From the IMG/VR virus record IMGVR_UViG_3300012228_000011, positions 1-31,940 of that record: a DNA stretch of 31,940 bases; one strand, written 5' to 3'. The notes beneath the pieces are model-generated. The model was not told the origin of the DNA. It did not search any database and worked only from the letters and a program-made list of their open reading frames with translations. Origin of the DNA: a virus. Made by a program: the position numbers and the translations under genes. Shown in pieces: positions 1 through 15,875 of this stretch (position 1 is the stretch's first letter; every line of letters begins with the position of its first letter).

Positions 1-180
1 CTCGGTCAGGAGGCGCGCTGGTTGAGGGAGCGCCAGGGCGAGCACCACGGCCGCCGGTGTCTCCGTCAAGAGACGCGCCGGTTGGGGCAGGGCGAGCGCG
101 AGCGGGACCGCGGCCGGCGTCTCCGTGCGGAGAATCGTCGGCGCCGGCAGGACGAGGGCGAGCACCGCGGGCGTCGGCGC
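1..180 (-). repeat. Three visible 60-bp tandem repeats coding a 20-residue motif
   Basis: Units lie at 1-60, 61-120 and 121-180 and the array continues off the left edge. Read on the minus strand each unit gives 20 residues: the two left units differ by one residue (TPAAV[V/P]LALALPQPARLLTE) and the third is a diverged copy, APTPAVLALVLPAPTILRTE. By direct comparison the first two units differ at about 15 of 60 bases yet at one residue, so most changes are silent. The repeat is therefore an old, protein-level repeat and not a fresh duplication. Confidence 0.9.
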
Positions 181-1407: not shown

Positions 1408-1480
1408 GGCGCTACCCGGGCGCTCCGCCCGGCGTCAGCGTGACGGTGGCAGGCATGGGAGGCCGGCCCACTCCACTAGC

Positions 1481-1921: not shown

Positions 1922-2001
1922 GGGCGGGGACCTCGAGGGGTGGGGCCGGGGCCCCGAGCATAGGGAGCCAGTCCGGGCGTTCCAAGAGGTAGAGTGTCCC
2001 C

Positions 2002-2538: not shown

Positions 2539-2990
2539 TAAACGCGACCGTGCACGTGCACGGTCATGTCGTCGAGAACGTCGATCGCGTTGACGTCACG
2601 GCAGCGGAGCTTCATCCCCTTTAGCAGGACGACCTCGCGGACCGGGACGTCGACATAGATCAGCGGGGAGAGGACCACCTCGGCGCGCCCCATCGGAGCA
2701 AACTGGAGGTCGCGCGCTTGCCCGGCTGTGATCGCGGTTGCCGACGCGAAAACGAGGACCGTGTCGTCCTCGGCGTCGAGGAGCTCGAAGACGAGCGCGC
2801 GGTTCCCCACCGTCGCCGTGGCGACGAACTCGAGGCGGACGACCGCGATCACGAGCGCCTTCGCTTGCGGCCCCACGTCCGTGTCGAAGACGAGGGTCTT
2901 CGAGGGCGCGTTCGGGGAGTCGTCGGTAAAGATCGCCCACGAGAAGTTGCCTGGGTCCCCCGCGGCCGCCTCGTCCTTTACCCAGGTCAC
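2535..2990 (-). CDS. Small beta-rich phage virion-type protein
   Basis: A 151-residue protein with a GTG start at 2990 (MTWVKDEAAAGDPGNFSWAI). It is rich in beta strands and ends with a motif often seen in small phage structural proteins of this size: LKGMKLRCRDVNAIDVLDDM followed by TVHVHGRVY. No catalytic motif is visible. The GTG lies 9 bases after the stop of the holin-like gene at 3000-3257, so the two are probably cotranscribed. Its stop codon overlaps the stop of the convergent plus-strand gene in the shared CTAG at 2535-2538. A role as an accessory virion protein is inferred from composition and neighbours. Confidence 0.75.
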   Translation of the reverse strand: MTWVKDEAAAGDPGNFSWAIFTDDSPNAPSKTLVFDTDVGPQAKALVIAVVRLEFVATATVGNRALVFELLDAEDDTVLVFASATAITAGQARDLQFAPMGRAEVVLSPLIYVDVPVREVVLLKGMKLRCRDVNAIDVLDDMTVHVHGRVY

Positions 2991-2999
2991 GGGGTCAGC

Positions 3000-3257
3000 T
3001 CACCGGAACGGAGGACGCGAGGTCGGCGCGGCGACGTTCTTCGGCGCCTTCGTCCCCTCGCTCGTGACGTTGTCGTCTCGCGCGAAGAGGCCGATGAAGG
3101 CTGCCCCCACGGCCGCCAGGAGCTCGGCCGCGTATTCGGGTTGGAAGACCGCGAGGAGGCCCGGGCCCCCCTCCGCGAGGAGCTTCGAGGCGAGGGAGAG
3201 GAGTAGGCCCAGGCCGGCGGCCACGCCGGCCACGGTCGTCTTTCGGCTCTTCAGCAT
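3000..3257 (-). CDS. Small two-helix membrane protein, holin-like
   Basis: An 85-residue protein starting with ATG at 3257. It has a basic N terminus (MLKSRKTT), a first hydrophobic helix (VAGVAAGLGLLLSLASKLLA, about residues 9-28), a short loop, a second hydrophobic helix (LLAAVGAAFIGLFA, about 46-59) and a charged C terminus. Two membrane helices, a short length and charged ends fit class II phage holins, which make the inner-membrane lesion at lysis. No endolysin is visible next to it, so the lysis role is inference; a small tail-associated membrane protein is the alternative. It is followed closely by the gene at 2535-2990. Confidence 0.65.
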   Translation of the reverse strand: MLKSRKTTVAGVAAGLGLLLSLASKLLAEGGPGLLAVFQPEYAAELLAAVGAAFIGLFARDDNVTSEGTKAPKNVAAPTSRPPFR

Positions 3258-3288
3258 GGCGCCAGGGTAGCTTCCGGGCTCCGGGACC

Positions 3289-4839
3289 TCACGGGTAGCC
3301 CTTGGAGAAGGGCCGAAGCCCCTCGCCCTGGAGCGCAAGCTGGGCCTCGTCCTGGACGGGGTAGCCTCGAGCCGCTGCCAAGGCCCGAATGGCGGGCGTG
3401 TTGCACCGGCGGATGCGGACACCCTCGGTCACCCCGCCCACCTGGGCGAGGACGTGCCACCCGTAGGCCGCGCTGTCCGTGATCGTGAGCGAGCGGGCGA
3501 CCGCGGCGTTCGGCATCCAGGCCCGGAGCGTCCCGACCCGGAGGAAGGGGTCGTAGTCGGCGTCCCCGACCGAGCGGAACCCGCACCGGCGGAGGACCAC
3601 GTCCCCGGTCGCCGGCCCCGGACCGCCCGGCCGGCCCTGGTCGTCGTAGTAGTCCTGGCCTCCGTCGTCGACCATGAGGCAGTGGGGGTTCCCAGGGACC
3701 GCGGAGCGCGGGGCACCCCAAAAAACGCAGTCCTCCGCGCGGACGTTGGTCCTCCCGCCGATCCCCTGAAAGGTCCACCCGGCGCCCCCGCGCCAGCCCC
3801 ACTCCTGGTCCCAGCGAAGGGCGCTGCAGCGCTTGAAGTAGAGGAGCGCGCCCGGGACGTCGTGGCATTCCGCCGGGCGCGCCGTGTGCTTCGAGCCCTC
3901 GGAGCCGGAGGCGTTGATCTGGACGTCGACCCAGGAGGAGCCGCGCGAGGCGTAGCCGTGCGAGTAGTGGGCGTGCTCGGCTCCGCGGGCGAAGTCGTAC
4001 ACGACGTCCCGGAAGTCGAGGTCGCCCTGGTAGCTGAAGGTTCCCCACACCGCCGAGTTCTGGATCCCCTGGGCGCCGCTCACGCCCGCGGGCGCGTGCT
4101 CGAGCCGGAGCGCGACCGTGACCGACTCCTCGTCGTCGATCGCAGGCCGGACGAGGATCGTCGCCTTCCCGCCGGCGATCGTCCCGGTTGTCGTCGTCCA
4201 GAAGCGGACACCGTCGGGCCGGACGACCACCGTCCCCGCCGGGACCATCGCGCCGTCCGTGCCGGTGAAGATCACCGAGCGCGCGGGATCCGCGACTATG
4301 CGCACGTCCCGGAGCACGAGGCGGAAGCGCGGCCGGATCGGCGAGACGTCCACGAGCTCGCCCTTGGCGTCCGCGTCCCGGGTCGCCAGGCCGAAGTGGA
4401 TCGCCTTCCTCTTCGCCGCGTGGATGGTCATGTGCTCGAGCCAGAGCACCCCGTCGAAGGGCCCGACGAAGATCGTCGAGTCGTGGTAGGTGTCCTCGCC
4501 GGCGACTATGTGGGTGAGGTCCCGCCCGGCGCCGGTGAAGCGCACGCCCTCGAGCTCCCGGGAGAGCCAGACCGCGGGGTCGTAGCGCTGGCGGTTGTCC
4601 CCTCGGAAGGCGAGGTCGAAGCCTGGCACCGTGCCGGCCGGCAGGTCCACCTGGCCGAGGCGGAGCTCGTCGGTCCCAGGGAAGAGCTCGAAGGGCTCGA
4701 GCGCGGCGCGCTCGAAGTCGAGAGGCTCCTCGGCCCCGGAGGGGAAGAGCTCGCGCGCGGTGACGCAAGCGAGGAAGCCGAGGAGGAGCCCGAGCAGGGC
4801 GAGCCAGACGATCCGGAAGGGGTTCGAGGGAGAGCGCAT
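3289..4839 (-). CDS. Exported or membrane-anchored beta-helix protein, function unknown
   Basis: A 516-residue protein with ATG at 4839, preceded by a good GGAGG. The N terminus is a signal or anchor: MRSPSNPFR, then a hydrophobic stretch IVWLALLGLLLGFLACVTA (about residues 10-28). A type I signal-peptidase site after VTA is possible; the cysteine context FLAC is a poor lipobox. The rest shows repeated short strands with regular turns (LWLEHMTIHAAKRKAIHF, LVLRDVRIVADPARSVIF, DVVLRRCGFRSV, RSLTITDSAAYGW, GVRIRRCNTPAI), the pattern of a right-handed parallel beta helix as in pectate-lyase-like proteins and tailspikes. No catalytic site could be assigned. Phage tailspikes normally lack a signal peptide, so an exported protein that alters the infected cell surface, or a virion protein with an N-terminal hydrophobic anchor, are both open. 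It is divergent from the plus-strand gene at 4896 across 56 bases. Confidence 0.75.
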   Translation of the reverse strand: MRSPSNPFRIVWLALLGLLLGFLACVTARELFPSGAEEPLDFERAALEPFELFPGTDELRLGQVDLPAGTVPGFDLAFRGDNRQRYDPAVWLSRELEGVRFTGAGRDLTHIVAGEDTYHDSTIFVGPFDGVLWLEHMTIHAAKRKAIHFGLATRDADAKGELVDVSPIRPRFRLVLRDVRIVADPARSVIFTGTDGAMVPAGTVVVRPDGVRFWTTTTGTIAGGKATILVRPAIDDEESVTVALRLEHAPAGVSGAQGIQNSAVWGTFSYQGDLDFRDVVYDFARGAEHAHYSHGYASRGSSWVDVQINASGSEGSKHTARPAECHDVPGALLYFKRCSALRWDQEWGWRGGAGWTFQGIGGRTNVRAEDCVFWGAPRSAVPGNPHCLMVDDGGQDYYDDQGRPGGPGPATGDVVLRRCGFRSVGDADYDPFLRVGTLRAWMPNAAVARSLTITDSAAYGWHVLAQVGGVTEGVRIRRCNTPAIRALAAARGYPVQDEAQLALQGEGLRPFSKGYP

Positions 4840-4895
4840 GGGTGGAAACCTCCGGGGGAGGAAAGGGGCGGTCGCCGAGGTTACCCTCGCCGGCC

Positions 4896-5426
4896 ATGGT
4901 TCACCGCATCGACAGTCCGGGCTCCGTGGCGGGGACGTGGGTCGGGGGGAACCCCTTCGCCGGCGTGCCGGGAACGATCATCGCGGCGGACTACTTGAAC
5001 GCCCACCAGGAGGAGCTCGTCTCCATGGTCGAGGCCGAGGGCCTCGCGGCGGACAAGCTCGACACGACCCAAGTCCGCCAGGCCGTCCTCCATGCCATCG
5101 CGCGCGTCGCTGGCGTCGAGCTCGTCTTCACCGCCGGCGCTAACCTCACCGCGGGGCAGGGGCTCCTCTCGGGCGACGTCTTCGGCGTCGTCAAGGATTC
5201 GGTCTCGACCGGCCAGCAGGCGACGCTCGTCGTCCGTGGGTCCTTCAATCTGCCGAAGGTCACCGCCGACGCGATGACCCTTCACCAGCGCGTCTATTGG
5301 GACAACGGGGTGGGCAAGCTCACGACCACCTCCGCCGGGAACCGCTCCGCCGGCGTCGTGATCGTGGCCGCGGGCGCGGGGTCGACGAGTGTCGAGGTCC
5401 TGCTCCAGGGGCCGCCGAACCTATAG
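4896..5426 (+). CDS. Chimera of tail-fibre-type N terminus and DUF2190 decoration domain
   Basis: A 176-residue protein from ATG 4896 to TAG 5426. Residues about 1-70 match the N terminus of the tail fibre at 7009-8292: HRID here versus HRVD there, P-x-x-VP-x-T, a D-[YF]-LNA-x-QEELV core, then DK...Q...AI...[VI]A. Residues about 75-176 have the DUF2190 pattern also seen in the capsid decoration protein at 21458-21808: LTAGQGLLSGDVFGVV, GSFNLPK, a VYWD or FWDD strand, then N-x-x-AGVV. It therefore looks like a decoration-type beta domain mounted on a fibre or baseplate tether. It is transcribed against the neighbouring structural genes. The ATG at 4896 is chosen over an upstream in-frame ATG at 4842 because homology to the fibre begins there. 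Confidence 0.8.
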   Translation: MVHRIDSPGSVAGTWVGGNPFAGVPGTIIAADYLNAHQEELVSMVEAEGLAADKLDTTQVRQAVLHAIARVAGVELVFTAGANLTAGQGLLSGDVFGVVKDSVSTGQQATLVVRGSFNLPKVTADAMTLHQRVYWDNGVGKLTTTSAGNRSAGVVIVAAGAGSTSVEVLLQGPPNL

Positions 5427-5772
5427 CGCTCGGAAGAAACGGGCGGCCCCCCCGGAACCGCGCGCTCGGTTCGCCCGGACCGCGCCTTCCATGGGCTCCG
5501 AGGCACGGAGCGCCGGCTCCAGTCCGAGCGACGCGCGGGGTCTCCCTGCTCATCCGTCCCCGGAGTGGTTGGGAGGAGGAGGCAGGACGACCAGGATCCC
5601 AGGAACTCGTTTCGCCTCCCGGGAGGCCGTCCGCGGAGGGCCCGCGCGGCGGTGAACCGGACCGCGCGCCCCTCCAGGGAGAAACCTACTCCGTTTCGGC
5701 TCAGGAAGCGTTCGCTCTCCGTCCGACATATGTAGCGCGCCGAGTGGCGACGAAGGAAAGGGAGCCGACACC
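5427..5772. other. 346-base intergenic stretch with several hairpins, no gene seen
   Basis: No frame in this stretch has convincing codon bias on either strand. It contains a perfect hairpin at 5455-5472 (GAACCG, 6-base loop, CGGTTC) about 30 bases after the stop of the previous gene; a second at 5495-5511 (GCTCCG, 5-base loop, CGGAGC) whose right arm can instead pair with GGCTCC at 5515-5520; a 14-bp palindrome GCCTCCCGGGAGGC at 5614-5627; and an 11-bp direct repeat CCGGACCGCGC at 5475-5485 and 5657-5667. The last 70 bases are the least GC-rich and include ACATATGT near 5727-5734, with a strong GGAAAGGGAG ribosome site before the ATG at 5773. It plausibly holds a terminator for the upstream gene and the promoter of the downstream operon; no good -35/-10 pair was found. 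Confidence 0.6.
5455..5472 (+). terminator. Candidate hairpin terminator without U-tract
   Basis: A perfect 6-bp stem GAACCG/CGGTTC with loop CGCGCT begins 28 bases after the TAG of the DUF2190 chimera. No T-run follows, so intrinsic termination is not certain; it could act with Rho or simply stabilise the 3' end of the message. Confidence 0.3.
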
Positions 5773-5961
5773 ATGAGCGTTCAGGAGATCCTGCGGGCGA
5801 TCGAGGTCGACGAGAAGCTGACCCAGGCCGAACGTCGCGGGGCACGCGCGCTCGAGACCGAGGAGAGCCGCCGGGGTCGCGAGGCCCTCGAGCGGATCGG
5901 CCGGCGCGAGCTGAAGGATCGCGCCCAGCTCCGGCTCCAGGTCCGCGGGGTGCGCCCGTGA
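5773..5961 (+). CDS. Small charged helical protein, unknown
   Basis: A 62-residue protein starting with ATG at 5773, preceded by a strong GGAAAGGGAG ribosome site about ten bases upstream. It is almost entirely helical and charged (EILRAIEVDEKLTQAERRGA, ERIGRRELKDRAQLRLQVRG). No family is recognised. It is the first gene of a five-gene plus-strand operon in which consecutive genes overlap by four to seven bases; its TGA overlaps the GTG start at 5958 as GTGA, implying translational coupling. Confidence 0.65.
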   Translation: MSVQEILRAIEVDEKLTQAERRGARALETEESRRGREALERIGRRELKDRAQLRLQVRGVRP

Positions 5962-6203
5962 GCCCCTTCCTCCGCCGGATGGCCTCGGACCTCGTCCACC
6001 TCCCGGGGGCGGCCTCGGCGTGCTACGTGCTCGACGCGCTGCTCCGGACCTGGCTCGCCTCCGAGGCGCCCACGGTCGACGTCCTGCCCGTGCTCGTGCT
6101 CGCGGCCTACGGGCTCGCATGCGCCTTCCACCAGCTCGTCCGCGGGGACGACTGGGTCTGGTCCGAACCTTCCACCTCGAACGAAGAGGATCCTGCCTCG
6201 TGA
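5958..6203 (+). CDS. Small membrane protein, unknown
   Basis: An 81-residue protein with a GTG start overlapping the previous TGA. A hydrophobic stretch VDVLPVLVLAAYGLACAFHQ (about residues 40-59) is a likely single membrane span, preceded by an amphipathic region and followed by an acidic tail (SEPSTSNEEDPAS). No family is recognised. Together with the next gene it makes a pair of tiny overlapping membrane proteins. That is compatible with a lysis or superinfection function, but nothing in the sequence proves it. Confidence 0.65.
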   Translation: MSPFLRRMASDLVHLPGAASACYVLDALLRTWLASEAPTVDVLPVLVLAAYGLACAFHQLVRGDDWVWSEPSTSNEEDPAS

Positions 6204-6403
6204 ATCCCGTTGCCTTCCACCGCGCTTGCGCGGCCTTCCACGCCTTCGCGGGCGTCCTCCTCCACGTCGCCGGCGGGTGCGGGGGCTGGGCGGCCTTCGC
6301 CTTCGCCCTCGCCTCGCTCCACGGGTGGCGCTCCCTCTGGCTCGAGCTACGGGGGCGCCAGGGCCGGGAGAGCGTTACCCTCTCGGGCGAGGACTTCCGG
6401 TGA
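6200..6403 (+). CDS. Tiny membrane protein, unknown
   Basis: A 67-residue protein with a GTG start forming GTGA with the stop of the previous gene. Residues about 10-45 are hydrophobic and rich in A, F, G and H (AAFHAFAGVLLHVAGGCGGW, then AAFAFALASLHGW), giving one or two membrane spans, followed by a charged C terminus. No family is recognised. The start is fixed by the overlap and by the length of the hydrophobic core; longer open frames through here are not supported. Confidence 0.6.
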   Translation: MNPVAFHRACAAFHAFAGVLLHVAGGCGGWAAFAFALASLHGWRSLWLELRGRQGRESVTLSGEDFR

Positions 6404-6621
6404 TTGTGAGCCACGAACGCGCGCGGGCGTTGAGGGCGGACCTCCTCGCTCGAGGGCCCGCCACGAAGGACGAGCTCTCGAAGCGCCTCGGCTGGCCCGA
6501 GGCCGTCGTGCGCGGCGCGCTCCGACTCCTCGGGGACGCCGGGGAGGCCGACTACTACCTGCTCTCCCAGCCGGGCGGCCGGCCGATGCGGGTCTGGGAA
6601 GCGCAGGACCCCGGGTGCTGA
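6400..6621 (+). CDS. Small winged-helix DNA-binding protein
   Basis: A 73-residue protein starting at GTG 6400, again overlapping the preceding stop as GTGA. Residues about 5-45 look like a winged helix-turn-helix: RARALRADLLARGPATKDEL, then SKRLGWPEAVVRGALRLLGDAG, followed by a short wing (EADYYLLSQPGGRPMRVWEA). Such domains bind DNA as small phage regulators or serve as an N-terminal reader for recombination proteins. It is directly followed, with a seven-base overlap, by the DUF1064 nuclease-like gene, so the two may act together. The target site is unknown. Confidence 0.65.
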   Translation: MIVSHERARALRADLLARGPATKDELSKRLGWPEAVVRGALRLLGDAGEADYYLLSQPGGRPMRVWEAQDPGC

Positions 6622-7007
6622 AGGGGCGCGCGGCGCTCGAGGCGGCCCTAGCCTCCGCGCGACGCGGTCGCGGCGCGAACAAGTACCACGTGGCCCCGCG
6701 CGAGGAGCGTACCGCGGACGGGATCGTCTTCGCCTCGAAGGCCGAGGCCCGGCGCTACCAGGACCTGAAGCTCCTCCGCTCCGCGGGGCATGTGCGTTTC
6801 TTCCTCCGCCAGGTCCCGTTCCACCTCCCGGGGGGGACGCGCTACCTGCTCGACTTCCTCGTCTTCTGGACCGACGGGCACCAGTCCTTCGAGGACGTGA
6901 AGGGGACGCGGACCGAGGTGTACGAGCTGAAGAGGCGCCAGGTCGCGGAGCTCTACGGCGTCGAGATCGAGGAGCTCGGCGTGCGCCGGCGCACGCCGAG
7001 GCGCTAG
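6615..7007 (+). CDS. DUF1064 family, predicted PD-(D/E)XK nuclease
   Basis: A 130-residue protein with a GTG start at 6615. It has the features of DUF1064 phage proteins: NKYHVAP, then DGIVFASKAEARRYQDLKLL, a Q-x-P-F strand (RQVPFHLPGG), YLLDFLVFW and FEDVKGTRTEVYELKRRQ. The F-x-S-K-x-E-A-x-x-Y helix, the D in LLDF and the E-D-V-K-G strand supply the E, D and E-x-K residues of a PD-(D/E)XK nuclease fold. The family is usually found among phage recombination or replication genes and may resolve branched DNA; that activity is inference here. Finding it between tail genes is unusual. Its TAG is one base from the stop codon of the convergent tail fibre gene. Confidence 0.85.
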   Translation: MLKGRAALEAALASARRGRGANKYHVAPREERTADGIVFASKAEARRYQDLKLLRSAGHVRFFLRQVPFHLPGGTRYLLDFLVFWTDGHQSFEDVKGTRTEVYELKRRQVAELYGVEIEELGVRRRTPRR

Positions 7008-7008
7008 G

Positions 7009-8292
7009 TCATGGGGCGGTGAGATCATCGCCGGTGCGCGTGATCTCCGCGAAGGCCTCCCAGCCGGCCGCGAAGACCTTCGTCCCGGCGGCCGGCGGGG
7101 CACCCGAGAAGATGGGCGCCCCGGTCGAGTTCCCGTTGTAGCTCTCCAGACCGGTCGCGCTCGTGATGACCGCGTGGTGCACGTCGACCGCGGCCCTCTC
7201 CGTGACGAAGCCGGCGAGGTTGTTCCTGCCCCACCAGCGGATCCCGAAGGTCCCTGTGTTCGTGAACTTGTCCGCGCGGAAGGTGTCGCGGAAGGACCCG
7301 ATGGCGTTCCCGCCACCGGTCGCCCAGACGAAGGCGGTGTCCCAGAGGCGGGCGAGGATCGAGCCCGCGCCGTTGGTCCCGCTCATCCCGTTGTTCTCCC
7401 GCGCCGTGTTCTCGTAGTACCGCCAGCACATGAGCCGCTCGAGCGGTTCAGGGCGCGAGAAGAAGCCGGGGTCCTTGCTCCCGCGGGAGAGCGAGAACGC
7501 GGTGAACTCGACGTCAATCGCCGTGTTGACGGGCCAGATAACCCGGACCTCGAGATAGGCCGGCTGCAGGAGGTCCTTCCCGGCGACGCTCGGGAGCGTC
7601 CCGGTGAAGGCAAAGCGGCGCCAGGAGGTGTCGACGAGGTTCCCGAGGACCGGGGTCAACGTGGTCGTGACCGGCGAGCCGGAGCCGAAGACCTGCTCCA
7701 CCTCCACCGCGAGGAGCGAGTGGTCCGCGCCTCCGATCCGGCGGAGGTCGAAGGCAAGGGTGATCGGCCGGCCCTCGTAAGTCTCGGCACGCTCGACGCG
7801 CTGGCGGAGCTTCGCGCTCTGCCCGACGACTGCGATCGAGTCCCATCTACAGGCGTAGGCGGAGCCGGATGGACCGCGGGGAGTCGCTCCGGTCAGGAAC
7901 GAGCGCGAGAGATTGCCCGTCCCGCCGGCGGAGTCGAAGAGCCAGCGGTCGGGCCCATAGTAGCCGCGCGAGAAGGTCGCCCCGACGACCGTTGTCCCGT
8001 AGCGGTTCCAGATCCGGAAGTCGGGATTGAGCAGGACGTTCCCGCTCGTGCCCTGGGCGGCAATCTTCAGGATGGCCTCGAAGAGCTGATCGCGGCTCCC
8101 CTTGTCGAGCGTCAACCCCATCCCGAGGACGGGCGCGACGAGCTCCTCCTGGACCGCGTTTAAGAAGTCGTCGGTCACTCGGGTTGCGGGGACCGCCATC
8201 AGCGGGTCGCCCTCGGTGAAGAAACCCGGGGTCCCGACCGGGTCGGGCGAGGGGATCACGGGGACGGCGGTAGTGTGGTCAACACGGTGCAT
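7009..8292 (-). CDS. Tail fibre protein
   Basis: A 427-residue protein from ATG 8292 to TGA at 7009. The N-terminal about 80 residues (MHRVDHT, VTDDFLNAVQEEL, LDKGSRDQLFEAILKIAAQG) are a baseplate-tethering region typical of phage fibres. From about residue 85 comes a carbohydrate-binding-module-like beta sandwich: NVLLNPDFRIWNRYGTT, then FSRGYYGPDRW. A further beta-rich region with a tip-like end (AGFVTERAAVDVHHAVITSA) follows. It probably recognises the host surface. Its position just after gp48 is the normal place for a fibre gene in Mu-like tails. The N terminus is shared with the plus-strand gene at 4896. No separate fibre-assembly chaperone is visible downstream; the DNA switches strand instead. 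Confidence 0.85.
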   Translation of the reverse strand: MHRVDHTTAVPVIPSPDPVGTPGFFTEGDPLMAVPATRVTDDFLNAVQEELVAPVLGMGLTLDKGSRDQLFEAILKIAAQGTSGNVLLNPDFRIWNRYGTTVVGATFSRGYYGPDRWLFDSAGGTGNLSRSFLTGATPRGPSGSAYACRWDSIAVVGQSAKLRQRVERAETYEGRPITLAFDLRRIGGADHSLLAVEVEQVFGSGSPVTTTLTPVLGNLVDTSWRRFAFTGTLPSVAGKDLLQPAYLEVRVIWPVNTAIDVEFTAFSLSRGSKDPGFFSRPEPLERLMCWRYYENTARENNGMSGTNGAGSILARLWDTAFVWATGGGNAIGSFRDTFRADKFTNTGTFGIRWWGRNNLAGFVTERAAVDVHHAVITSATGLESYNGNSTGAPIFSGAPPAAGTKVFAAGWEAFAEITRTGDDLTAP

Positions 8293-8295
8293 GGT

Positions 8296-8922
8296 CTAAG
8301 TCCTCGTGGGGATCGGAAGGACGAGGCGGATCGGGAGGCTCGAGGGGATCGCGAAGCTCCAGGGGGCGTAGCCGGTGTAGGGCTTGTCGTACACGTAGAG
8401 GAAGAAACCGTGGGCGGGCTTGATCGAGTCCAGGGTGCACTCGAGCAGGCCGTTCCCGAAGGTGACGAGCGGTTCGCCGGCGACCGTGATCCCCGCGCGC
8501 GCGAAGCGCGGGGTCACCTCGCCCGCGTGGATCTCCACCGCGAAGGCCCAGTCGTCACCGTAGAGGTAGTCGCCGGCCGCGCTCCCCGCGACGAAGGCCT
8601 GGAACCCGACGATGTCCACGACCTCGACGTCGTACCCGAGGCCCTTCGCGACCTCGGAGAGGTGGAAGCGGTTCTGCCCGCCGGGCAGGGCTATCTTCCG
8701 GTAGGCCGCGTAGCGTTGCTCCGTCGTTGTCTGGGGCAGGCCGTCGGTGCAGTCGTCCGCCAGGCCGAGGAACTCAATCCACTCCGGGAGGAGCTCGAGC
8801 ACGGTGCGGAGGTCCGCCTCGTCGTGGAGGTCGAGCGAGCGCTCCTCAACGTCGGCGAGGAGCTCGGCCGGGGCGCGGAGGAGATCGAGGAGGACGGTCA
8901 AGGGCTGGACCTCTTCGGCCAC
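8296..8922 (-). CDS. Mu gp48-like baseplate protein (DUF2313/YmfQ), N terminus in another frame
   Basis: From a possible GTG at 8922 this frame encodes 208 residues with the body of the DUF2313 family: LLDLLRAPAELLADVEE, LRTVLELLPEWIEFLGLADD, GGQNRFHLSEVAKGLGY, DYLYGDDWAF, LLECTLDSIKPAHGFFLYVY. In Mu-like phages this protein follows gp47 and completes the baseplate periphery where fibres attach. The family's first block (a Y-x-x-x-L-x-x-LLP-x-G-x-AW motif) is missing here but is present at 8966-8919 in the neighbouring frame, at the end of the 501-codon gene. Joining W (8921-8919) to the GCC codon at 8919 needs one base to be read twice, so the gene is frame-broken or recoded. The GTG has no ribosome site. 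The stop lies three bases before the tail fibre ATG. Confidence 0.85.
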   Translation of the reverse strand: MAEEVQPLTVLLDLLRAPAELLADVEERSLDLHDEADLRTVLELLPEWIEFLGLADDCTDGLPQTTTEQRYAAYRKIALPGGQNRFHLSEVAKGLGYDVEVVDIVGFQAFVAGSAAGDYLYGDDWAFAVEIHAGEVTPRFARAGITVAGEPLVTFGNGLLECTLDSIKPAHGFFLYVYDKPYTGYAPWSFAIPSSLPIRLVLPIPTRT

Positions 8923-10403
8923 GCTAGGCCGCGGGGGAGGAGCGCGGCCAGTGACTCGTGATAGGCGGGGCCTAGATCCGGCTCCTCGACGATCACCGGA
9001 ATCGCCGGCGTGAAGACGGCCGGCGCCGGCAGGACCAGCGCGATCGGAACCGCGTTGGGTTGGTGCGGCGCCATGATGGTAGGCACCGGGACCGAGAGAG
9101 GGATGGGGACGGGGGTCGGAAAAACCCGGTTCTCCGCGAGGAGCGAAGGGGCGGGGAGCCCGAGGTCGAGGGTCGCCGCGGCGGGCTCGAGCGCGGGGAT
9201 CCGCGAGACGCCCCACAGGAAGAGGCGCCCCGCCTGGGATGTCGCGACGTCGATCGAGAGCCCGGTCGGCGTGATCGCGACCGAGGTCGCGCGGAAGGCC
9301 GTCCCGCCGGCGCCCGAGACCACGTTCCACTCGCCCGATTTGTAGCGCGAGTACGCCACGGTGGGCATCGAGTCGGGGTCAAGGCCCTCGTCGATCGCAC
9401 AGGAGATCGAATGGGTCTCGACTCCGTCCGTGACGAAGACCCCGAGCTGTTGCGCCGGCGCTCCGGTCTGAAGCGCGTCGCTGCTCGTGGCTCCGATCCA
9501 AACGCCGATCACAACCTCGCAGTAGCGCCCGAGGCCGACGAGCGCCGTGACGCCACTCTCGCTCCCGGTGAAGGTCTCGACCGCGATCAGGCCGACGCGG
9601 TCGTCAACCCAGTTGAAACCAAGCCAGAAGGCACCGACGGCGGTCCCGTCGCGGTCGAAGCCGTCGGTGACGAAGTCCGTCACCGCGTCGTCGCTCACGG
9701 TGGTTGGAACCCCGCCCGCCTCCTGGATCGCCCCCGCGTAGTTCGTGGTGCTCAGGTACTGTCCGCACGAGACCGGGTCGGCGGCCGTGGGCCAGCACGT
9801 GCCGGCGAAGCCCTGGACGATCGAGCCGCCGTCCACCGCTCCGCCGACCGTGACCGAGAAGCCGGTGGCTATCCCGCCGAAGCTTCCGCGCTTCGCGAAG
9901 GAGAGGAGATGGGTCGGCGACCCGCCCACGTAGAAGGAGGCGTTCTGGGCGGCCGAGCCGGCGCGGACCCCGCACCCTCCGAAGAGGATCACGATGAGCT
10001 TGACCTTCCTCGAGGAGGAGAGCCCGGAGACGTCGGTCCAGTTGACCGCGATCCCGTCCGAGAGGTCGGAGACCGTGCCCAGCGCCCAGTCTCCCCCGAG
10101 CGTCGCCGGATCGAGGACGCGGATCAGGCCCGTTCCGGCCGAGGAGGTGGAGGCCGCGTGTCTCGCGACGCTCGCGCCGCTCTGCCCCGCACGGAAGAAG
10201 CTCGAGAGGCCTCCCGCCTTCGTGCTCGGGCCCTGCTTCGAGAAGTAGGCGAGCGAGAGCTGGGCGGAGCTCGCCTCGGTGAGGTAGTCGCCGGAGACGA
10301 AGACCACCGCGGCCTGGAAGTCCGTGATCTTCGGAGAGGTGTAGTTGACAACGCCCGTGGAGAGGGGCGCGTCGACCACGAGGACGGCGAACTCGTCAGC
10401 CAT
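8898..10403 (-). CDS. Large adhesin-like virion protein with proline-rich repeats, fused to the gp48 N-terminal motif
   Basis: A 501-residue protein starting with ATG at 10403, 11 bases after the gp47 stop. No family is recognised by name. It appears to hold three beta-rich domains of about 130-150 residues, recognisable by closing strands (KVKLIVILFGG near 165, DDRVGLIAVETFTG near 290, ATSVAITPTGLSIDVA near 385). Residues about 406-466 are three proline-rich repeats of about 20 residues. The architecture matches the truncated gene at 1-1407. The last 22 residues (AYHESLAALLPRGLAWP) are not part of that layout: they are the conserved start of DUF2313/gp48, whose remainder continues one frame away. 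Mu has no such gene between gp47 and gp48. A receptor-binding or decoration role at the baseplate is inferred. Confidence 0.8.
   Translation of the reverse strand: MADEFAVLVVDAPLSTGVVNYTSPKITDFQAAVVFVSGDYLTEASSAQLSLAYFSKQGPSTKAGGLSSFFRAGQSGASVARHAASTSSAGTGLIRVLDPATLGGDWALGTVSDLSDGIAVNWTDVSGLSSSRKVKLIVILFGGCGVRAGSAAQNASFYVGGSPTHLLSFAKRGSFGGIATGFSVTVGGAVDGGSIVQGFAGTCWPTAADPVSCGQYLSTTNYAGAIQEAGGVPTTVSDDAVTDFVTDGFDRDGTAVGAFWLGFNWVDDRVGLIAVETFTGSESGVTALVGLGRYCEVVIGVWIGATSSDALQTGAPAQQLGVFVTDGVETHSISCAIDEGLDPDSMPTVAYSRYKSGEWNVVSGAGGTAFRATSVAITPTGLSIDVATSQAGRLFLWGVSRIPALEPAAATLDLGLPAPSLLAENRVFPTPVPIPLSVPVPTIMAPHQPNAVPIALVLPAPAVFTPAIPVIVEEPDLGPAYHESLAALLPRGLAWPKRSSP
9006..9188 (-). repeat. Three proline-rich 20-21 residue repeats within the adhesin-like protein
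   Basis: The encoded units are EPAAATLDLGLPAPSLLAEN, then a 21-residue unit beginning RVFPTPVPIPLSVPVPT, then HQPNAVPIALVLPAPAVFTP. They share the spacing P-x-x-h-h-x-L-x-L-x-x-P-x-P with the 60-bp repeats at 1-180 but are too diverged to align at the DNA level by eye. Confidence 0.75.
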
Positions 10404-10414
10404 GGCCTCTTCAC

Positions 10415-11479
10415 CTACACGAAGGTCACCGTCCCGAGGACGGGGAGGCTCGTCGCCCCGACGACGACGTCGCCGGCGGGCACGGTGAGGACGTGGTCCT
10501 GTTCGCCCGCGGCCGTCGCGATGGCCTCGACGAACTTCGCGTGGGAGATCGTCCCACCTGGCGCGCCCTCACGGACGAGCATCCCGCGAAGCGCGTCCTC
10601 CACGGCCACCTGGACGGGGAGCGTGTTCGGGGTGAGCGCGACCGTGATCGCGATGGCCTGGGCAACGGGCGGGATCGTCGTCACGGCCGCTGTCACCGGA
10701 GCGCTGTCGCGGCGCGTCTCGTCGGTCAGGCGGTCCTGGACCTCCTGGACCTTCGCCGGGTTCGGGATCGGGCCGCCTGGGTCGTCGTCGACCGCGAAGA
10801 GAACGAGCACCGTGCCGAGGCCCAGGCCGTTCTCGATGACGAAGACGCGGGTTACGCCGGGGACCTCGCGCGCCCAGGCTTTGTAGTCGGCGACCGATCC
10901 GCCCTGGGGTGGGGCCGAGACGAGCTCCTGCAGTCGGTCGCGGAGCTCGCGGTCGGTCTCCGCGTCGAGCCCGTTCACGAGGCCGCCGGCGTCAACCGTG
11001 GCACCGGTCACGCCGGCGATCGGCGTCGCGAGTGCGAGCGAGCTCGCCGCGGCGGTGTTCCCGGCCAGCCCAGCGAGCTCGGCCAGGACCGGGAGCGAGA
11101 GCACGCCGGCCGCGATCGTCCCGCCGGCGGTCGTGATGAAGCGCCGGCCGTCGACCCGCTGGACGACCGTTCCGAGGGGCACTGCGACCCCGCTCGTCCC
11201 GGCGAAGGTCACGGTTCCGGCGGCCCCCGCGGCCGGCCGACGCTCGAGGCCGAAGAGGTCCGCCCAGCGCTCGAGCACCTCGGCGTCCGCGGTCAGGGGC
11301 ACAACCTGGCGTGAGACCCAGTCGAGGTAGCCGTAGAGCCCGTGGAGTCCTCCCGCCCAGACGCGCGCCAGGACCTTCAGGACCGACCGATCGAGGAGCG
11401 AACCGAGGCCCAGGCGCGAGGCAGTCTCGCTTTCCGCACGGGCCACGAGCTCGGCGAGGGTCGGGCGCGCGAAGGTCAC
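10415..11479 (-). CDS. Baseplate J-like protein (Mu gp47)
   Basis: A 354-residue protein from GTG 11479; a TTG at 11488 in the same frame is an alternative start. It has the baseplate J signature: FARPTLAELVARAESETASR, LYGYLDWVSRQVVPLTADAE then LERWADLFGLERRPA, VTFAGTSGVAVPLGTVVQ, and FITTAGGTIAAGVLSLPVLA. The later VNGLDAETDRELRDRLQEL and SVADYKAWAREVPGVTRVFV are also typical. In Mu and P2 this protein builds the wedges of the baseplate around the spike. It sits between gp46 and the adhesin-like gene in the Mu order. Confidence 0.93.
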   Translation of the reverse strand: MTFARPTLAELVARAESETASRLGLGSLLDRSVLKVLARVWAGGLHGLYGYLDWVSRQVVPLTADAEVLERWADLFGLERRPAAGAAGTVTFAGTSGVAVPLGTVVQRVDGRRFITTAGGTIAAGVLSLPVLAELAGLAGNTAAASSLALATPIAGVTGATVDAGGLVNGLDAETDRELRDRLQELVSAPPQGGSVADYKAWAREVPGVTRVFVIENGLGLGTVLVLFAVDDDPGGPIPNPAKVQEVQDRLTDETRRDSAPVTAAVTTIPPVAQAIAITVALTPNTLPVQVAVEDALRGMLVREGAPGGTISHAKFVEAIATAAGEQDHVLTVPAGDVVVGATSLPVLGTVTFV

Positions 11480-11502
11480 GGCGCCCAATGGTGCCGTCCG
11501 CG

Positions 11503-11994
11503 CTAGGGGACCGCCACCAGCGCGAAGCGGGCCGGCCCCACCGCGAGGGTGACCGCGAGCTGGGCCGTCCAGAGGTCCGCGCGCTCGGCCGCCTGGCCGC
11601 GGATCAGGCGCACCTCGAGGAAGAGCGTCTGGCCGTCGAGCCTCGAGGCGGTAGCCTCGACGCGCTCGGCGATCCCGGCCTCGAGAAGCCAGGCGAAGGC
11701 CGCGCGCGCGTGCGCCTCGGCCTGAACGAGGGTCTCGTTCCGGAGCTTCGAGCGCTCGAGAAGCCAGAGGAGCGAGCCGAAGCCCGCGGCGCGGTCCTCC
11801 TCGATCACCTCGGCGGCCCACCAGCCACGCCGATCAGTCCCGAGGTCGGGGAGCTCGTCGTCGGCCGCGGCGAGCGCGTCCGAGAAGAGCGACACCAGGG
11901 CCGCGGTTGTCAGACCGTCCTCTGTCCGAAGGTCGCCGTCCTCGAGCACGAGGTCGAGCGTCTCGCCCACCGGAACCAGCGCTACGTCGATCAT
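11503..11994 (-). CDS. Mu gp46-like baseplate protein
   Basis: A 163-residue protein from ATG 11994. The N terminus IDVALVPVGETLDLVLEDGD, then LRTEDGLTTAALVSLFSDA, DRRGWWAAEVIEEDRAAGFG, SLLWLLERSKLRNETLVQAE and AGIAERVEATASRLDGQTLF follow the pattern of the Mu gp46 / phage GP46 family: a W-W-x-D-type turn and a helical middle, then LEVRLIRG-type strands. It is a baseplate wedge component (the counterpart of P2 W / T4 gp25). There is an in-frame upstream extension, but family homology begins at this ATG. No strong Shine-Dalgarno is visible. Confidence 0.88.
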   Translation of the reverse strand: MIDVALVPVGETLDLVLEDGDLRTEDGLTTAALVSLFSDALAAADDELPDLGTDRRGWWAAEVIEEDRAAGFGSLLWLLERSKLRNETLVQAEAHARAAFAWLLEAGIAERVEATASRLDGQTLFLEVRLIRGQAAERADLWTAQLAVTLAVGPARFALVAVP

Positions 11995-12026
11995 GGGTGG
12001 AAGAGCGTACACACCCGACAATCGAA

Positions 12027-12064
12027 CGGCCGCGGCCACCCCCTATCGAGGTCGGCCGCGGCCG
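12027..12064 (-). other. Strong GC hairpin between two baseplate genes
   Basis: An 11-bp perfect inverted repeat (CGGCCGCGGCC at 12027-12037 and GGCCGCGGCCG at 12054-12064) separated by 16 bases, within the 90-base gap between the gene ending at 12085 and the gp46 start at 11994. No T-run follows on the minus strand. It may be a Rho-independent-like terminator or pause, or an mRNA structure tuning expression of the downstream baseplate genes. Confidence 0.45.
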
Positions 12065-12084
12065 TCATGGAAGGGGGCAGCCCT

Positions 12085-12546
12085 TCAGGAGCGCCGGGAG
12101 CGGAGCTTGCTCGCGCTGGTCGCGGTTCGGATCGCGCCGAAGACGTCGGACTGGCCGTTCGCGTCGGCGCCGATCGAACCGGACAGCACGACGGTGTTGG
12201 CGTCGCGCTTCGACTCGACCGCAACCGCCACGCCGGCGTTGACTCCGGTCCCGCCGGCAGGGACGAAGACCTCGCCCGAGCTCGGGCTGTAGTTCTGGAA
12301 GGCTCCCTGGGCCGAGAGCGTGCGGCTCTGCTCGTCCCAGGTGGCCGCGTTGACGGTGACGACGATCGGGAACGGGTCCGTGGCGCTCGCGCCCATCTCC
12401 TCGAGCTCGGTCGCGACCGCGCCGAAGGCCTCGGCCTCCTCGGGCGTCAGGTCCGCGTCTTCGATCAGTTGGCGAATCCGCGCGCCCACTCGGGACGTCG
12501 CGACGTTGAAGCGATCGATCATCTTCTGGGTTTCCGGGCCGATCAT
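12085..12546 (-). CDS. Unknown tail-module protein with helical head and beta C-terminal domain
   Basis: A 153-residue protein from ATG 12546, which overlaps the preceding TGA as ATGA. Residues 1-55 are helical (TQKMIDRFNVATSRVGARIR, ADLTPEEAEAFGAVATELEE) and residues about 60-153 are beta-rich (FPIVVTVNAATWDEQSRTLS, GGTGVNAGVAVAVESKRDA, TVVLSGSIGADANGQ). No family is recognised. Lying between the gp45 spike and gp46, it is probably a baseplate or tail-tip accessory. The helical segment PEEAEAF resembles TPEGVAAFDAVARKLERLG in the neighbouring gene, hinting that the two share a common module. Confidence 0.75.
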   Translation of the reverse strand: MIGPETQKMIDRFNVATSRVGARIRQLIEDADLTPEEAEAFGAVATELEEMGASATDPFPIVVTVNAATWDEQSRTLSAQGAFQNYSPSSGEVFVPAGGTGVNAGVAVAVESKRDANTVVLSGSIGADANGQSDVFGAIRTATSASKLRSRRS

Positions 12547-12791
12547 AGGGGTAGCTCTTCCTTCTGGGTCTGGGGGGGTTTTGGTCGGGTGGGGCCGCCG
12601 AGCCGCTCGAGCTTGCGGGCCACGGCGTCGAAGGCGGCGACGCCCTCGGGGGTGAGATCGTGGGCGAGGTCGAGCTTGTGCTCGATCCTCGCCAGCGTCC
12701 GCTCTATCGCGGCGAAGGCTCGGCCGAGCTCGATCCCGAGGTGGACCGATGCCGGGTCGTGCGCGCTCCGCTCTCGGTGCTCTGGGGTCAT
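12543..12791 (-). CDS. Small helical protein, unknown
   Basis: An 82-residue protein from ATG 12791. It is helical (LGIELGRAFAAIERTLARIE, then HDLTPEGVAAFDAVARKLER) with a proline/lysine-rich C terminus. The spacing of hydrophobic residues suggests a coiled coil. The segment LTPEGVAAFDAVARKLERLG resembles LTPEEAEAFGAVATELEEMG in the next gene, with which it overlaps by four bases. A 67-base gap separates its start from the gp45 stop. The function is unknown. Confidence 0.7.
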   Translation of the reverse strand: MTPEHRERSAHDPASVHLGIELGRAFAAIERTLARIEHKLDLAHDLTPEGVAAFDAVARKLERLGGPTRPKPPQTQKEELPL

Positions 12792-12858
12792 GGTGGAGGA
12801 GGGTACGGCGCGCGGGGGCTGGGCGGAAGGACTCCCCGTCCAAGCGCAATGCCCGGCC

Positions 12859-13404
12859 CTAGACCGTCGGCACAGGGGGCCCTGTCGTCCCGCCCTGCGG
12901 GTCCGAGTGGGTGTGCACGTTGTACGCGGAGCGGAGAGCCGCGAGCGTCCCGACGAGGTCGCTCACGTTCCCGGTGGCCTCGACGTCCCCGGTCACGGCC
13001 ACCTTGCCCGCGACCTTCAGGTCCCCCGAGGCGACGACCTCTACCGAGCCGTCGGCGCGAACGAAGATCCGGGCCGGCCCGGAGGCATAGAGGCACACCT
13101 CGCCCTCGGCGAGCGTCGCGACCGGACGCGCTCGGCGGTCCTCGTCCGCGACCACGATAGGGTGGTCCCGGTTCCCGCCGAGGCAGAGGACCACGACCTC
13201 GGAACCCGTGGGCGGCCGGGTCGTCAGGCCGAAATGGGCGAACCGCTCAACCTCGCGGAGGGTCTCCCTCGAGAGCACGGCGAGCTCGAGCGTCTGGGCC
13301 TTCGTCGTGTCCGTCGAGGAGCGCACGACCGCCCGCTGGGCCAGCACCTTCACGCGGTGGAGGACCGGCTCGACCAGGCGCCGGACGAGGTCGACCATCG
13401 CCAC
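12859..13404 (-). CDS. Mu gp45-like baseplate spike protein
   Basis: A protein of 181 residues from GTG 13404, or 179 from the ATG at 13398. It has the phage baseplate assembly protein V / gp45 pattern: an N-terminal helix and OB-like part (VDLVRRLVEPVLHRVKVLAQ, then TKAQTLELAVLSRETLREVE), the strand GSEVVVLCLGGNRDHPIVVA, and repeats of short G-containing strands (ASGDLKVAGKVAVTGDVEAT), forming a triple beta-helix. It ends with YNVHTHSDPQ. The HTH triplet (about residues 164-166) is the H-x-H iron-binding motif seen at the tips of contractile-tail spikes. It punctures the outer membrane. Its start is four to ten bases after the P stop. Confidence 0.92.
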   Translation of the reverse strand: MAMVDLVRRLVEPVLHRVKVLAQRAVVRSSTDTTKAQTLELAVLSRETLREVERFAHFGLTTRPPTGSEVVVLCLGGNRDHPIVVADEDRRARPVATLAEGEVCLYASGPARIFVRADGSVEVVASGDLKVAGKVAVTGDVEATGNVSDLVGTLAALRSAYNVHTHSDPQGGTTGPPVPTV

Positions 13405-13407
13405 CGC

Positions 13408-14478
13408 TTAGAAGCCTCCGTCCTCTTCGCCGAACTCGAGCTCCTCGGCCGCGTCCACCGCGGGCTCGGGATCGTAGGCGTCCGCACGCGTCAGTCCGAC
13501 CTCGGTCAGGGTCCCCTGCTCGAGGTCGCGCGTGTGGTGGAGTTCATTCACGAGGAGGACCTGGTCGAGCCCGGCGCCCTGGATCGCCACGTGGGAGAGG
13601 ACGTTGAGCGGCCAGACGCGCCCGCCTGGACGTTGGCGCCAGCCCTGGACCACGCACGAGCACGTGGCGCTGCGGGCGGCCCGCACCGTCGCCTCCCAGC
13701 CCGCGCGGTCCTTCGCACTCTCGAAGACTAGCGCGCCCTCCGCCAGCACGAGGAGCGGGCGGAATCGCTCGACGCCCGGGTCCTCCGCCGTCCCCTCGAC
13801 GAGCGCCGACTGGTCCGCGAAGTAGTCGTCGGCGCCGGGGTGCTGGGCCCGGACGACGTAGCTCGAGAAGCGCTGGCGGAGGTTCGTCTCAACCGCCCAC
13901 TCGAGGACGTTCCGGCCCTCGATCAGGGCCACCTGGGCGAGCTGGCGCCCGGGGCGCTCGAGGAGGAGCGCGCCGTCACCGGCGGAGTGGGCGAGGACCC
14001 CGCGGAGTCGACACGCGCGCTCAATCGCGCTCCAGGCGGTCTCTCCTGGCTGGCGCGCAAAGCGGAGGAAGGGCTCGGTCTCTTCCTCGAGGAGCGAACG
14101 GACCTCGACGTCGAAGGGCTTCGCGATCAGCTCCACGAGCTGCTGCAGGTCCACGTCGTGCCACTCGCCCGGCTCCGAGAGCTCGGAGCAGTCGACGAGA
14201 TCCGCTGTCCGGTCGCGCCCCGAGACGACCACCGAGCGCTCGCGCGCGCCCCCGCGCGCCTGGATCGCGTCCACGTACCCACGGATCACGACCTCGCCCG
14301 CGAGGCGCACGGTCACCTCCTGGCCGGCCCGGATCGGCAGGGGGTCGCGGTCGGAGACCTGGACCGTGAAGGCACCCGAGGCCGCCTCCATCGAGCGGGA
14401 GACCTCCACGCGCTCCCAGCCCGAGAAGCTCCGGCCGCCGACCAGGAGCTCGAGCTCGTCCTCGTCTACCGCGGGCAA
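13408..14478 (-). CDS. P: Mu gpP-like baseplate hub protein
   Basis: A 356-residue protein starting at TTG 14478, with GAGGTGA five bases upstream as its ribosome site; it begins five bases after the N stop. The sequence has the contractile-tail hub pattern: LELLVGGRSFSGWERVEVSR, AASGAFTVQVSDRDPLPIRA, GQEVTVRLAGEVVIRGYVDA, SVVVSGRDRTADLVDCSELS, then ETAWSAIERACRLRGVLAHS. This matches the Mu P (gp44) / P2 D / T4 gp27 hub fold, the trimer that joins the tube to the spike. It has a slightly acidic C terminus (VDAAEELEFGEEDGGF). The neighbours N and gp45 support the call. Confidence 0.93.
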   Translation of the reverse strand: MPAVDEDELELLVGGRSFSGWERVEVSRSMEAASGAFTVQVSDRDPLPIRAGQEVTVRLAGEVVIRGYVDAIQARGGARERSVVVSGRDRTADLVDCSELSEPGEWHDVDLQQLVELIAKPFDVEVRSLLEEETEPFLRFARQPGETAWSAIERACRLRGVLAHSAGDGALLLERPGRQLAQVALIEGRNVLEWAVETNLRQRFSSYVVRAQHPGADDYFADQSALVEGTAEDPGVERFRPLLVLAEGALVFESAKDRAGWEATVRAARSATCSCVVQGWRQRPGGRVWPLNVLSHVAIQGAGLDQVLLVNELHHTRDLEQGTLTEVGLTRADAYDPEPAVDAAEELEFGEEDGGF

Positions 14479-14482
14479 GGGT

Positions 14483-15688
14483 TCACCTCGAGAGCACGAG
14501 GAGCGGGACGAGGCCGGGGAGGCGGAGCGGGTGGCGGAGGGCGTTCTGGTCGACGAGCTCCTGGGCCCGGCTCTCGTCCTGGTAGAGCTCGTGGGCGACG
14601 ACCAGGGCCGGGCGCGTGGTCGAGAGGGTCATGGTCCGGAGACTCGGGAGGTCGCGGTCAGGCGGAGGCACGGAGCGCGCCAGGGTCACGCGGAGGGCCT
14701 CGAGGGTGGGGATCGCGTCGTCCGAGGCGTGGGCCTCGAGCTCGTCCAGGCGCGCCGCGAGCTCGGCCTGGACCTCCTGGGCCTCCTCGAGGGTCCGGTA
14801 GTCTACGCGCGCGGCCGCCCGTACGGAGCCGGCCATGGCGGCCGTCTCCACGAGCTCGGCCGTGAGCCGGCCGTTCTCGACCGCGACCTCGCCCTGCAGG
14901 CCCGGCCCGGCGTCGTCCACGGGGGGGAAGTCCCGGAGGGCCCGGTAGGCCTCGAGCGCCCCGAGCGGCGCGGAGGAGGCATCCAGGACGGCGTCGAGGG
15001 CTTGAAGCACGCGCGCCGCGAGGTCCGCCGGCGCCGAGACCAGGACGGAGACCTGGGTCAGGAGACCGGTCAGAGCCGACTCGAGCGAGGCCACGTCCCG
15101 CGCGGGCCCGCTGAAGACGTCCAGGTGCCGGAGGCGCGCCACGGCCTCCAGGACGACGTCCTCGACCGCGGTACGGGCGCGCTCGACCACGCCGGCCACC
15201 ACGACCCCTTCCTCGAAGGCCTCCAAAGCGGCCGTCCCAAGGGCCTCCGCGGCCTGGTCGGCTTCACCCACCGGGTCCGCCCGCGGGGCCGGCTCGATCT
15301 CCTCCCCGACCTCCTCGAACTCGGCCATGAACCGGACCATCCGCCCCTCGTCGGTCGTCTCCCGGAACCGGAAGGACCGGCACAGGGCGAGGAACGTCCC
15401 GATGGTCGGATGAACGAGCGTTCGGCCGGGCTTCCGCGGGAACCCGGGGCTCGCACCTTCGAAGACTGCCTGCAGGCGGTCCCGCTGCAGGGCGTAGTCC
15501 TCGCCCAGGAGGTAGCCCTCGACCTGGATCCGGCGCACCTCGCGCCCGAGCTCCTCGACGAAGGGCCGGTCGCGCAGCGGGTACTCGTGCACGGCCGCCC
15601 GCCGGCCGCCGGCGAACTCGCTTTCCCGGACCTTGAAGGGGACGCCGGCGAAGCTCGCCGGCAGGAGTCTTTCCTTCCAGGTGGGCAT
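14483..15688 (-). CDS. N: Mu gpN-like DNA circulation / tail protein
   Basis: A 401-residue protein from ATG 15688. Its N terminus is the diagnostic part: MPTWKERLLPASFAGVPFKV, then GGRRAAVHEYPLRDRPFVEE and VEGYLLGEDYALQRDRL. This is the DNA circularisation protein N family (Mu gp43). In Mu, N is a tail/baseplate component that enters with the DNA. The remaining two thirds are helical (RVDYRTLEEAQEVQAELAAR, and others). It lies between the tape measure and P as in Mu. Confidence 0.92.
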   Translation of the reverse strand: MPTWKERLLPASFAGVPFKVRESEFAGGRRAAVHEYPLRDRPFVEELGREVRRIQVEGYLLGEDYALQRDRLQAVFEGASPGFPRKPGRTLVHPTIGTFLALCRSFRFRETTDEGRMVRFMAEFEEVGEEIEPAPRADPVGEADQAAEALGTAALEAFEEGVVVAGVVERARTAVEDVVLEAVARLRHLDVFSGPARDVASLESALTGLLTQVSVLVSAPADLAARVLQALDAVLDASSAPLGALEAYRALRDFPPVDDAGPGLQGEVAVENGRLTAELVETAAMAGSVRAAARVDYRTLEEAQEVQAELAARLDELEAHASDDAIPTLEALRVTLARSVPPPDRDLPSLRTMTLSTTRPALVVAHELYQDESRAQELVDQNALRHPLRLPGLVPLLVLSR

Positions 15689-15875
15689 GGGGGCGGACCT
15701 TATCGGGTTCCGGGAAGTCGATAAAGAGCCGGCCGTGGCCGTCGGCGTCCGTCACCAGGCGGGGCGCGGATGGTCTCCAGCCCGCCGGGACGGCAGCGCG
15801 GAGGAGGAGGACGCTCGCGTATCCGGCGGTTCCCCCGGGCGGCTCGTCCGGCCTCGGCCGGCGCGCGCGAGCCTA
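15689..15875 (-). other. Interval between tape measure and N with unexplained coding signal
   Basis: The tape measure ends with two consecutive TAG codons. The same frame after them is open and has a coding-like third-position bias from about 15870 to 15700, reading YASVLLLRAAVPAGW and LVTDADGHGRLFIDFPEPDK, but it has no ATG/GTG/TTG until 15755 and runs on deep into N without a stop. Either a small gene here has lost its start and stop by indels, or this is a relic of a longer tape measure C terminus. It is not called as a gene. Confidence 0.4.

What the first reader, a model, noticed from the sequence alone, without database searches (positions are those of the whole stretch)
8898..8990. gp48 split across two frames and joined to the adhesin-like protein
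The conserved DUF2313 opening motif (LAALLPRGLAW) ends the 501-codon frame, while the rest of DUF2313 continues one base back. A single re-read or missing base at TGG/GCC (8919) restores the join. If repaired, the product is one about 700-residue polypeptide fusing three adhesin-like domains, the repeats and gp48, a design not known to me in Mu-like baseplates.
Basis: partly seen in the sequence, partly recalled or inferred. Interest (0 to 1): 0.7.

Follow-up and report, generated by a model that had tools for sequence, protein, structure and literature searches.

The report
Phage baseplate protein split between genes
In this phage the first helix of the tail baseplate protein gp48 is encoded at the end of the upstream gene while the rest of gp48 is a gene of its own, and a diverged relative has the same split, so it looks like a natural rearrangement rather than a sequencing error.

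Summary
The break is real and correctly placed. ORF501 (8898-10403, minus) ends in the N-terminal segment of gp48 (AYHESLAALLPRGLAWPKRS). The rest of gp48 runs in another frame to 8296. A profile of 66 intact gp48 proteins matches the ORF501 tail at positions 14-33 and the core at 37-202, so the split is clean and co-linear.

A second contig matches the window exactly over 17,237 bases. A diverged relative (L004, about 83% protein identity) has the same two-gene layout with a junction 2 bases longer. Its core therefore lies in the other relative frame, with an ORF stop before a GTG start and no earlier start. No fused form was found; 148 of 160 related loci carry an intact single-frame gp48.

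Best explanation: a stable fission of gp48. The core starts at TTG 8901, overlapping the ORF501 stop (TTGA). The cut falls in the loop between helices 1 and 2 of the helix-turn-helix that builds the wedge core bundle. I infer that the ORF501 tail supplies helix 1 in trans and may anchor ORF501 to the baseplate. That step is untested.

The parts
10415..11479 (-). gp47-like baseplate J protein (wedge BW2), GTG start, 354 aa
   Evidence: PF04865 Baseplate_J 2.1e-60; phrog_6 1e-69; 94% identical to the L004 copy
8898..10403 (-). ORF501: protein of unknown fold (residues 1-404), Pro-rich repeats, and the gp48 N-terminal segment as its C-terminal tail
   Evidence: only relatives found are the window's twin and L004, plus the paralog at the left window end
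8979..9191 (-). Pro-rich repeat linker of ORF501 (residues 405-475; unit LxLxLPxP), fast evolving
   Evidence: dN/dS 0.49 against L004; repeat units at residues 412, 434, 454
8907..8966 (-). displaced gp48 N-terminal segment AYHESLAALLPRGLAWPKRS (ORF501 residues 480-499), helix 1 plus start of loop
   Evidence: HMM of 66 intact gp48 matches profile 14-33; no amino-acid change in LLPRGLAWPKRS against 5 synonymous changes
8910..8916 (-). Shine-Dalgarno-like GAAGAGG, 8 nt before TTG 8901 (10 nt before GTG in L004)
   Evidence: duplex energy -6.5 kcal/mol in both; modest, near the 10% quantile of background
8898..8901 (-). TTGA: start codon of the gp48 core overlapping the ORF501 stop codon
   Evidence: aligned with GTG 5890 in L004
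8296..8901 (-). gp48 core (wedge BW3 without helix 1), TTG start, 201 aa
   Evidence: PF10076 and phrog_203; 84% identical to L004; profile 37-202
7009..8292 (-). tail fiber protein, 427 aa, directly downstream
   Evidence: phrog_4492 and several other tail fiber families

Best explanation
This is a stable fission of the baseplate wedge protein gp48 (BW3). Shown: the N-terminal segment (helix 1 and the LLPxGxAW turn) is the C-terminal tail of the upstream ORF501; the rest of gp48 is a separate open frame; a relative about 83% identical keeps the same split. Strongly suggested: the core is translated from its own start (TTG 8901 here, GTG in L004), coupled to the end of ORF501. Inferred: the ORF501 tail still packs as helix 1 into the gp47-gp47-gp48 core bundle, so the wedge is completed in trans and ORF501, possibly a surface or receptor-contact protein on a Pro-rich tether, is anchored to each wedge.
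For: Co-linear, non-overlapping profile matches 14-33 and 37-202. Second contig identical over 17,237 bases and extending 6,182 bases further left. L004: same layout, 2-base longer junction, opposite relative frame, TGA then GTG 5890 as the only start. Tail dN/dS 0.087, and LLPRGLAWPKRS 0 nonsynonymous / 5 synonymous, beside a linker at 0.49 (Fisher p 0.02 and 0.013). The gp48 core is also constrained (dN/dS 0.3). Model of an intact relative: helix 5-14, loop 15-28, helix 29-55; the cut falls in the loop. In phage XM1, gp17 residues 1-48 form a helix-turn-helix in the core bundle (PMC10457771), and Mu wedges have the same three-helix bundle (PMC11915804). A TTG start with a similar leader (GAGGTGAACCC) is likely for the hub gene at 14478.
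Against: Only two distinct lineages carry the split, and both are metagenomic contigs. Purifying selection rests on a single pairwise comparison, and the tail is not significantly more constrained than the ORF501 N-terminal part (p 0.41). The Shine-Dalgarno match is not exceptional for this GC-rich DNA. No structure of ORF501 could be predicted, so anchoring and surface exposure are guesses. No expression or protein data exist.
Confidence: 0.68

Rival explanations
1. Sequencing or assembly error: a lost base splits what is really one fused gene.
For: The frames differ by one base and the two pieces are co-linear.
Against: Identical in a second contig; L004 has the split with a different junction length and opposite relative frame, and its core frame is closed 27 nt upstream of the start.
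Confidence: 0.04
2. Programmed ribosomal frameshifting makes a fused product in addition to the separate ones.
For: A 20-nt identical stretch lies at the junction; an SD-like element lies just upstream; in L004 a stop codon follows the SD-like element closely, loosely as at prfB.
Against: No X XXY YYZ heptamer in the ORF501 frame in either sequence (read); the shift would have to be -1 in the window and +1 in L004; no unusual RNA structure (z 0.13, -0.86, -1.18, 0.06); other identical runs in the same genes are longer.
Confidence: 0.08
3. Fission with the tail a relic: the core works without helix 1 and the LLPRGLAW tail has no function in ORF501.
For: The core starts just before helix 2 and is otherwise complete.
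Against: The tail is kept at the protein level while the adjacent linker diverges; intact relatives nearly all retain the segment.
Confidence: 0.18

Closest known systems
Phage Mu gp48 (PF10076; PHROG 203; PDB 9ki1), baseplate wedge BW3
   Same: Core sequence and fold family, gene lying between gp47 and the tail fiber gene; profile of relatives hits 9ki1 at 4.5e-28 and Foldseek of an intact relative's model ranks it first.
   Different: Mu gp48 is one polypeptide with its own start before LLPSGLAW and follows gp47 directly; here the N-terminal segment is on another protein and ORF501 lies between.
XM1 gp17 / gp16 core bundle (PMC10457771)
   Same: N-terminal helix-turn-helix (residues 1-48) forms the core bundle; this is the element cut here.
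   Different: In XM1 the helix-turn-helix is within one chain.
Prophages with a fiber-like gene between gp47 and gp48 (L028, L057, L074)
   Same: A large extra gene sits between gp47 and gp48.
   Different: gp48 there is intact with its own start; the extra gene does not carry the LLPxGxAW segment and shows no similarity to ORF501.
Sphingomonas sp. Ant H11 gp48 (L174)
   Same: A Pro-rich stretch runs in frame into the gp48 N-terminal segment.
   Different: No adhesin-like ORF; the frame breaks there lie elsewhere in a draft assembly and may be errors.

Membership tests
Phage_Mu_Gp48 (PF10076) | Whole-protein score above the curated cut-off | tested here: met
   54.2 bits against 37.4 for the core frame
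Phage_Mu_Gp48 (PF10076) | N-terminal LLPxGxAW segment in the same polypeptide | tested here: not met
   Segment is in ORF501; the core matches only from profile 17 of PF10076 or 37 of my profile
Phage_Mu_Gp48 (PF10076) | Gene directly follows gp47 | tested here: not met
   ORF501 intervenes; about 1.5 kb gap against about 0 in most relatives
Phage_Mu_Gp48 (PF10076) | C-terminal LEC...PAH region | tested here: met
   LECTLDSIKPAH present
Programmed ribosomal frameshift gene | Slippery site in the upstream frame | tested here: not met
   No X XXY YYZ heptamer in the window or L004 (sequence read)
Programmed ribosomal frameshift gene | Same shift direction in relatives | tested here: not met
   -1 in the window, +1 in L004
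Programmed ribosomal frameshift gene | Stimulatory RNA structure | tested here: not met
   No z-score below -1.2; pseudoknots were not tested
Translationally coupled gene pair | Overlapping or adjacent stop and start with an upstream SD | tested here: met
   TTGA overlap in the window; TGA-ACCC-GTG in L004; GAAGAGG 8-10 nt upstream in both
Translationally coupled gene pair | Expression of the second gene depends on translation of the first | not testable with these tools
   Needs reporter assays

The most novel reading that the evidence does not exclude
A split baseplate wedge protein whose first core-bundle helix is donated in trans by the C-terminus of an adhesin-like protein, so that the same 20 residues complete the wedge and tether a probable receptor-contact protein to each wedge.
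Probability: 0.45. Interest if true: 0.65.

Novelty: new variant of a known kind. Interest (0 to 1): 0.5.

Why it matters
gp48 homologs form part of the conserved core bundle of contractile tails. A natural cut inside that bundle shows where the chain can be interrupted, and suggests a simple way for a phage to hang an extra protein on its baseplate without a new docking site. It would make testable whether the first helix of the wedge can act as a separate docking peptide. It also warns that apparent frameshifts in metagenomic phage genes can be real gene splits.

Tried and rejected
ORF501 family identity: Pfam, PHROGs, PDB sequences and the phage collection gave nothing; the AlphaFold model was unusable, so no fold search was made with it. 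Searches for a fused gp48 in IMG/VR, GTDB genomes and Pseudomonadota prophages found none; the long open frames in three prophages were out-of-frame read-through of the overlapping gp47 gene, not fusions. Programmed frameshifting tested and disfavoured. An alternative start at GTG 8922-8920 was rejected because the equivalent frame stops early in L004. L106 and L174, two draft genomes with a broken gp48, break inside the core or helix 2 and do not match this split. A survey of PF10076 in the Sphingomonas relative's family gave only intact gp48 with starts at the motif, apart from that draft itself. Literature searches for a split wedge protein found nothing relevant.

Full report
What is there. 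The window is a whole IMG/VR record of 31,940 bases of a contractile-tailed phage: terminase, portal, a protease-fused major head protein, sheath, tape measure, hub and baseplate genes run on the minus strand. In the baseplate region the order is gp47-like J protein (10415-11479), ORF501 (8898-10403), gp48 core (8296-8901) and tail fiber (7009-8292). ORF501 ends ...LGPAYHESLAALLPRGLAWPKRSSP*. The gp48 frame continues one base back and matches PF10076 only from profile position 17.

The tail is the missing start of gp48. I built an HMM from 66 intact gp48 proteins that excluded the window and its relative. It matched ORF501 residues 480-499 at positions 14-33 and the core at positions 37-202. 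The two pieces are co-linear and do not overlap. In the known phages compared, including Mu, the same segment is the N-terminus of gp48, with its own start codon about a dozen residues upstream. The same holds in 111 intact relatives.

It is not a sequencing slip. A second record (IMGVR_UViG_3300012231_000052) equals window 1-17237 without a mismatch and extends 6,182 bases beyond the left end; it may come from the same population or even the same reads, so alone it is weak. The stronger evidence is L004 (IMGVR_UViG_3300011443_000127), whose ORF501 is 83% and gp48 84% identical in protein. L004 has the same layout, but the junction is 2 bases longer. Its core is therefore in the +1 frame relative to its ORF500 instead of -1; ORF500 stops with TGA at 5883-5885, and the core's GTG is at 5890. 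The core frame is closed by a TAG 27 nt before that GTG, with no other start between. GTG 5890 aligns with TTG 8901 in the window, which overlaps the ORF501 stop as TTGA. A 2-base length change at the junction could be tolerated because each piece has its own stop and start.

No fused form was found. Of 160 loci retrieved with the J protein from IMG/VR and GTDB (some redundant), 148 have a full single-frame gp48; the rest are contig ends, loci without gp48, edge cases in one frame, two drafts broken elsewhere, and the window's twin and L004. PF10076 matches in 14 of 299 genomes sampled from one phylum all start at profile positions 1-6; three long open frames there proved to be out-of-frame read-through of the overlapping gp47 region. 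A few prophages have a fiber-like gene between gp47 and gp48, but their gp48 is intact.

Selection. Against L004 the Pro-rich linker of ORF501 evolves fast (dN/dS 0.49), the tail slowly (0.087), and LLPRGLAWPKRS shows no amino-acid change beside five synonymous ones. Fisher tests against the linker give p = 0.02 and 0.013; against the N-terminal part of ORF501 there is no difference (p 0.41). The tail is thus kept as protein in the ORF501 frame. This is one pair of sequences, so the strength is limited.

Where the cut falls. An AlphaFold model of an intact relative (L027, mean pLDDT 84.7, pTM 0.52) has helix 5-14, loop 15-28 and helix 29-55; Foldseek places Mu gp48 (9ki1) first. The ORF501 tail ends inside the loop, and the core begins just before helix 2. 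In phage XM1 the equivalent residues 1-48 of gp17 form a helix-turn-helix that joins two gp16 chains in the core bundle (PMC10457771). In Mu the corresponding regions of BW3 and two BW2 chains form a three-helix bundle held between gp43 helix-rich domains (PMC11915804). The break therefore separates helix 1 from helix 2 of a structural bundle.

How it probably works. Translation of ORF501 ends at 8898; the GAAGAGG element 8 nt before TTG 8901 would allow re-initiation (inferred; the SD energy is ordinary for this DNA). The ORF501 tail then packs as helix 1 in the wedge (inferred), which would tether ORF501 through its Pro-rich linker. The role of ORF501 residues 1-404 is unknown: no family match and no usable model. 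A paralog with the same repeats lies across the left window end (L011 5769-7589), and the gp48 core ends in one copy of the repeat motif.

Verdict. This is a new variant of a known baseplate protein, a conserved gp48 fission, seen so far in two lineages. Interest is moderate: the split itself is well supported, the in-trans helix is an attractive but untested inference.

Noticed in passing
window 16-813 (minus); full gene L011:5769-7589 minus: A 606-aa paralog of ORF501 (28% over residues 194-462) with seven LxLxLPxP repeat units; it has no gp48 segment. A 77% relative exists in L184.
   Followed up: partly
window 8299-8331 (minus): The gp48 core ends in one copy of the LxLxLPxP repeat motif (IRLVLPIPTRT; IPLVLPIPTRT in L004), the same unit as in ORF501 and its paralog.
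   Followed up: partly
window 3289-4839 (minus): 516-aa ORF with a weak match (residues 188-231, E 2e-4) to baseplate J-type PHROGs (phrog_2103, phrog_6).
   Followed up: no
L174: Sphingomonas sp. Ant H11 prophage gp48 with a ~60-residue Pro-rich extension running into the N-terminal segment, followed by two frame breaks in the draft.
   Followed up: partly
L028, L057, L074: A 670-770 aa fiber-like gene between gp47 and gp48, with gp48 carrying an extra ~40-residue N-terminal extension (DYLY.V...G..L.W..A.LIWE).
   Followed up: partly
window 21861-24209 (minus): Head protease and major head protein appear joined in one 782-aa ORF (phrog_4523).
   Followed up: no
window 5394-5486 (plus): ARAGORN calls a tRNA-Tyr with the unusual anticodon ATA; possibly a false call.
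   Followed up: no
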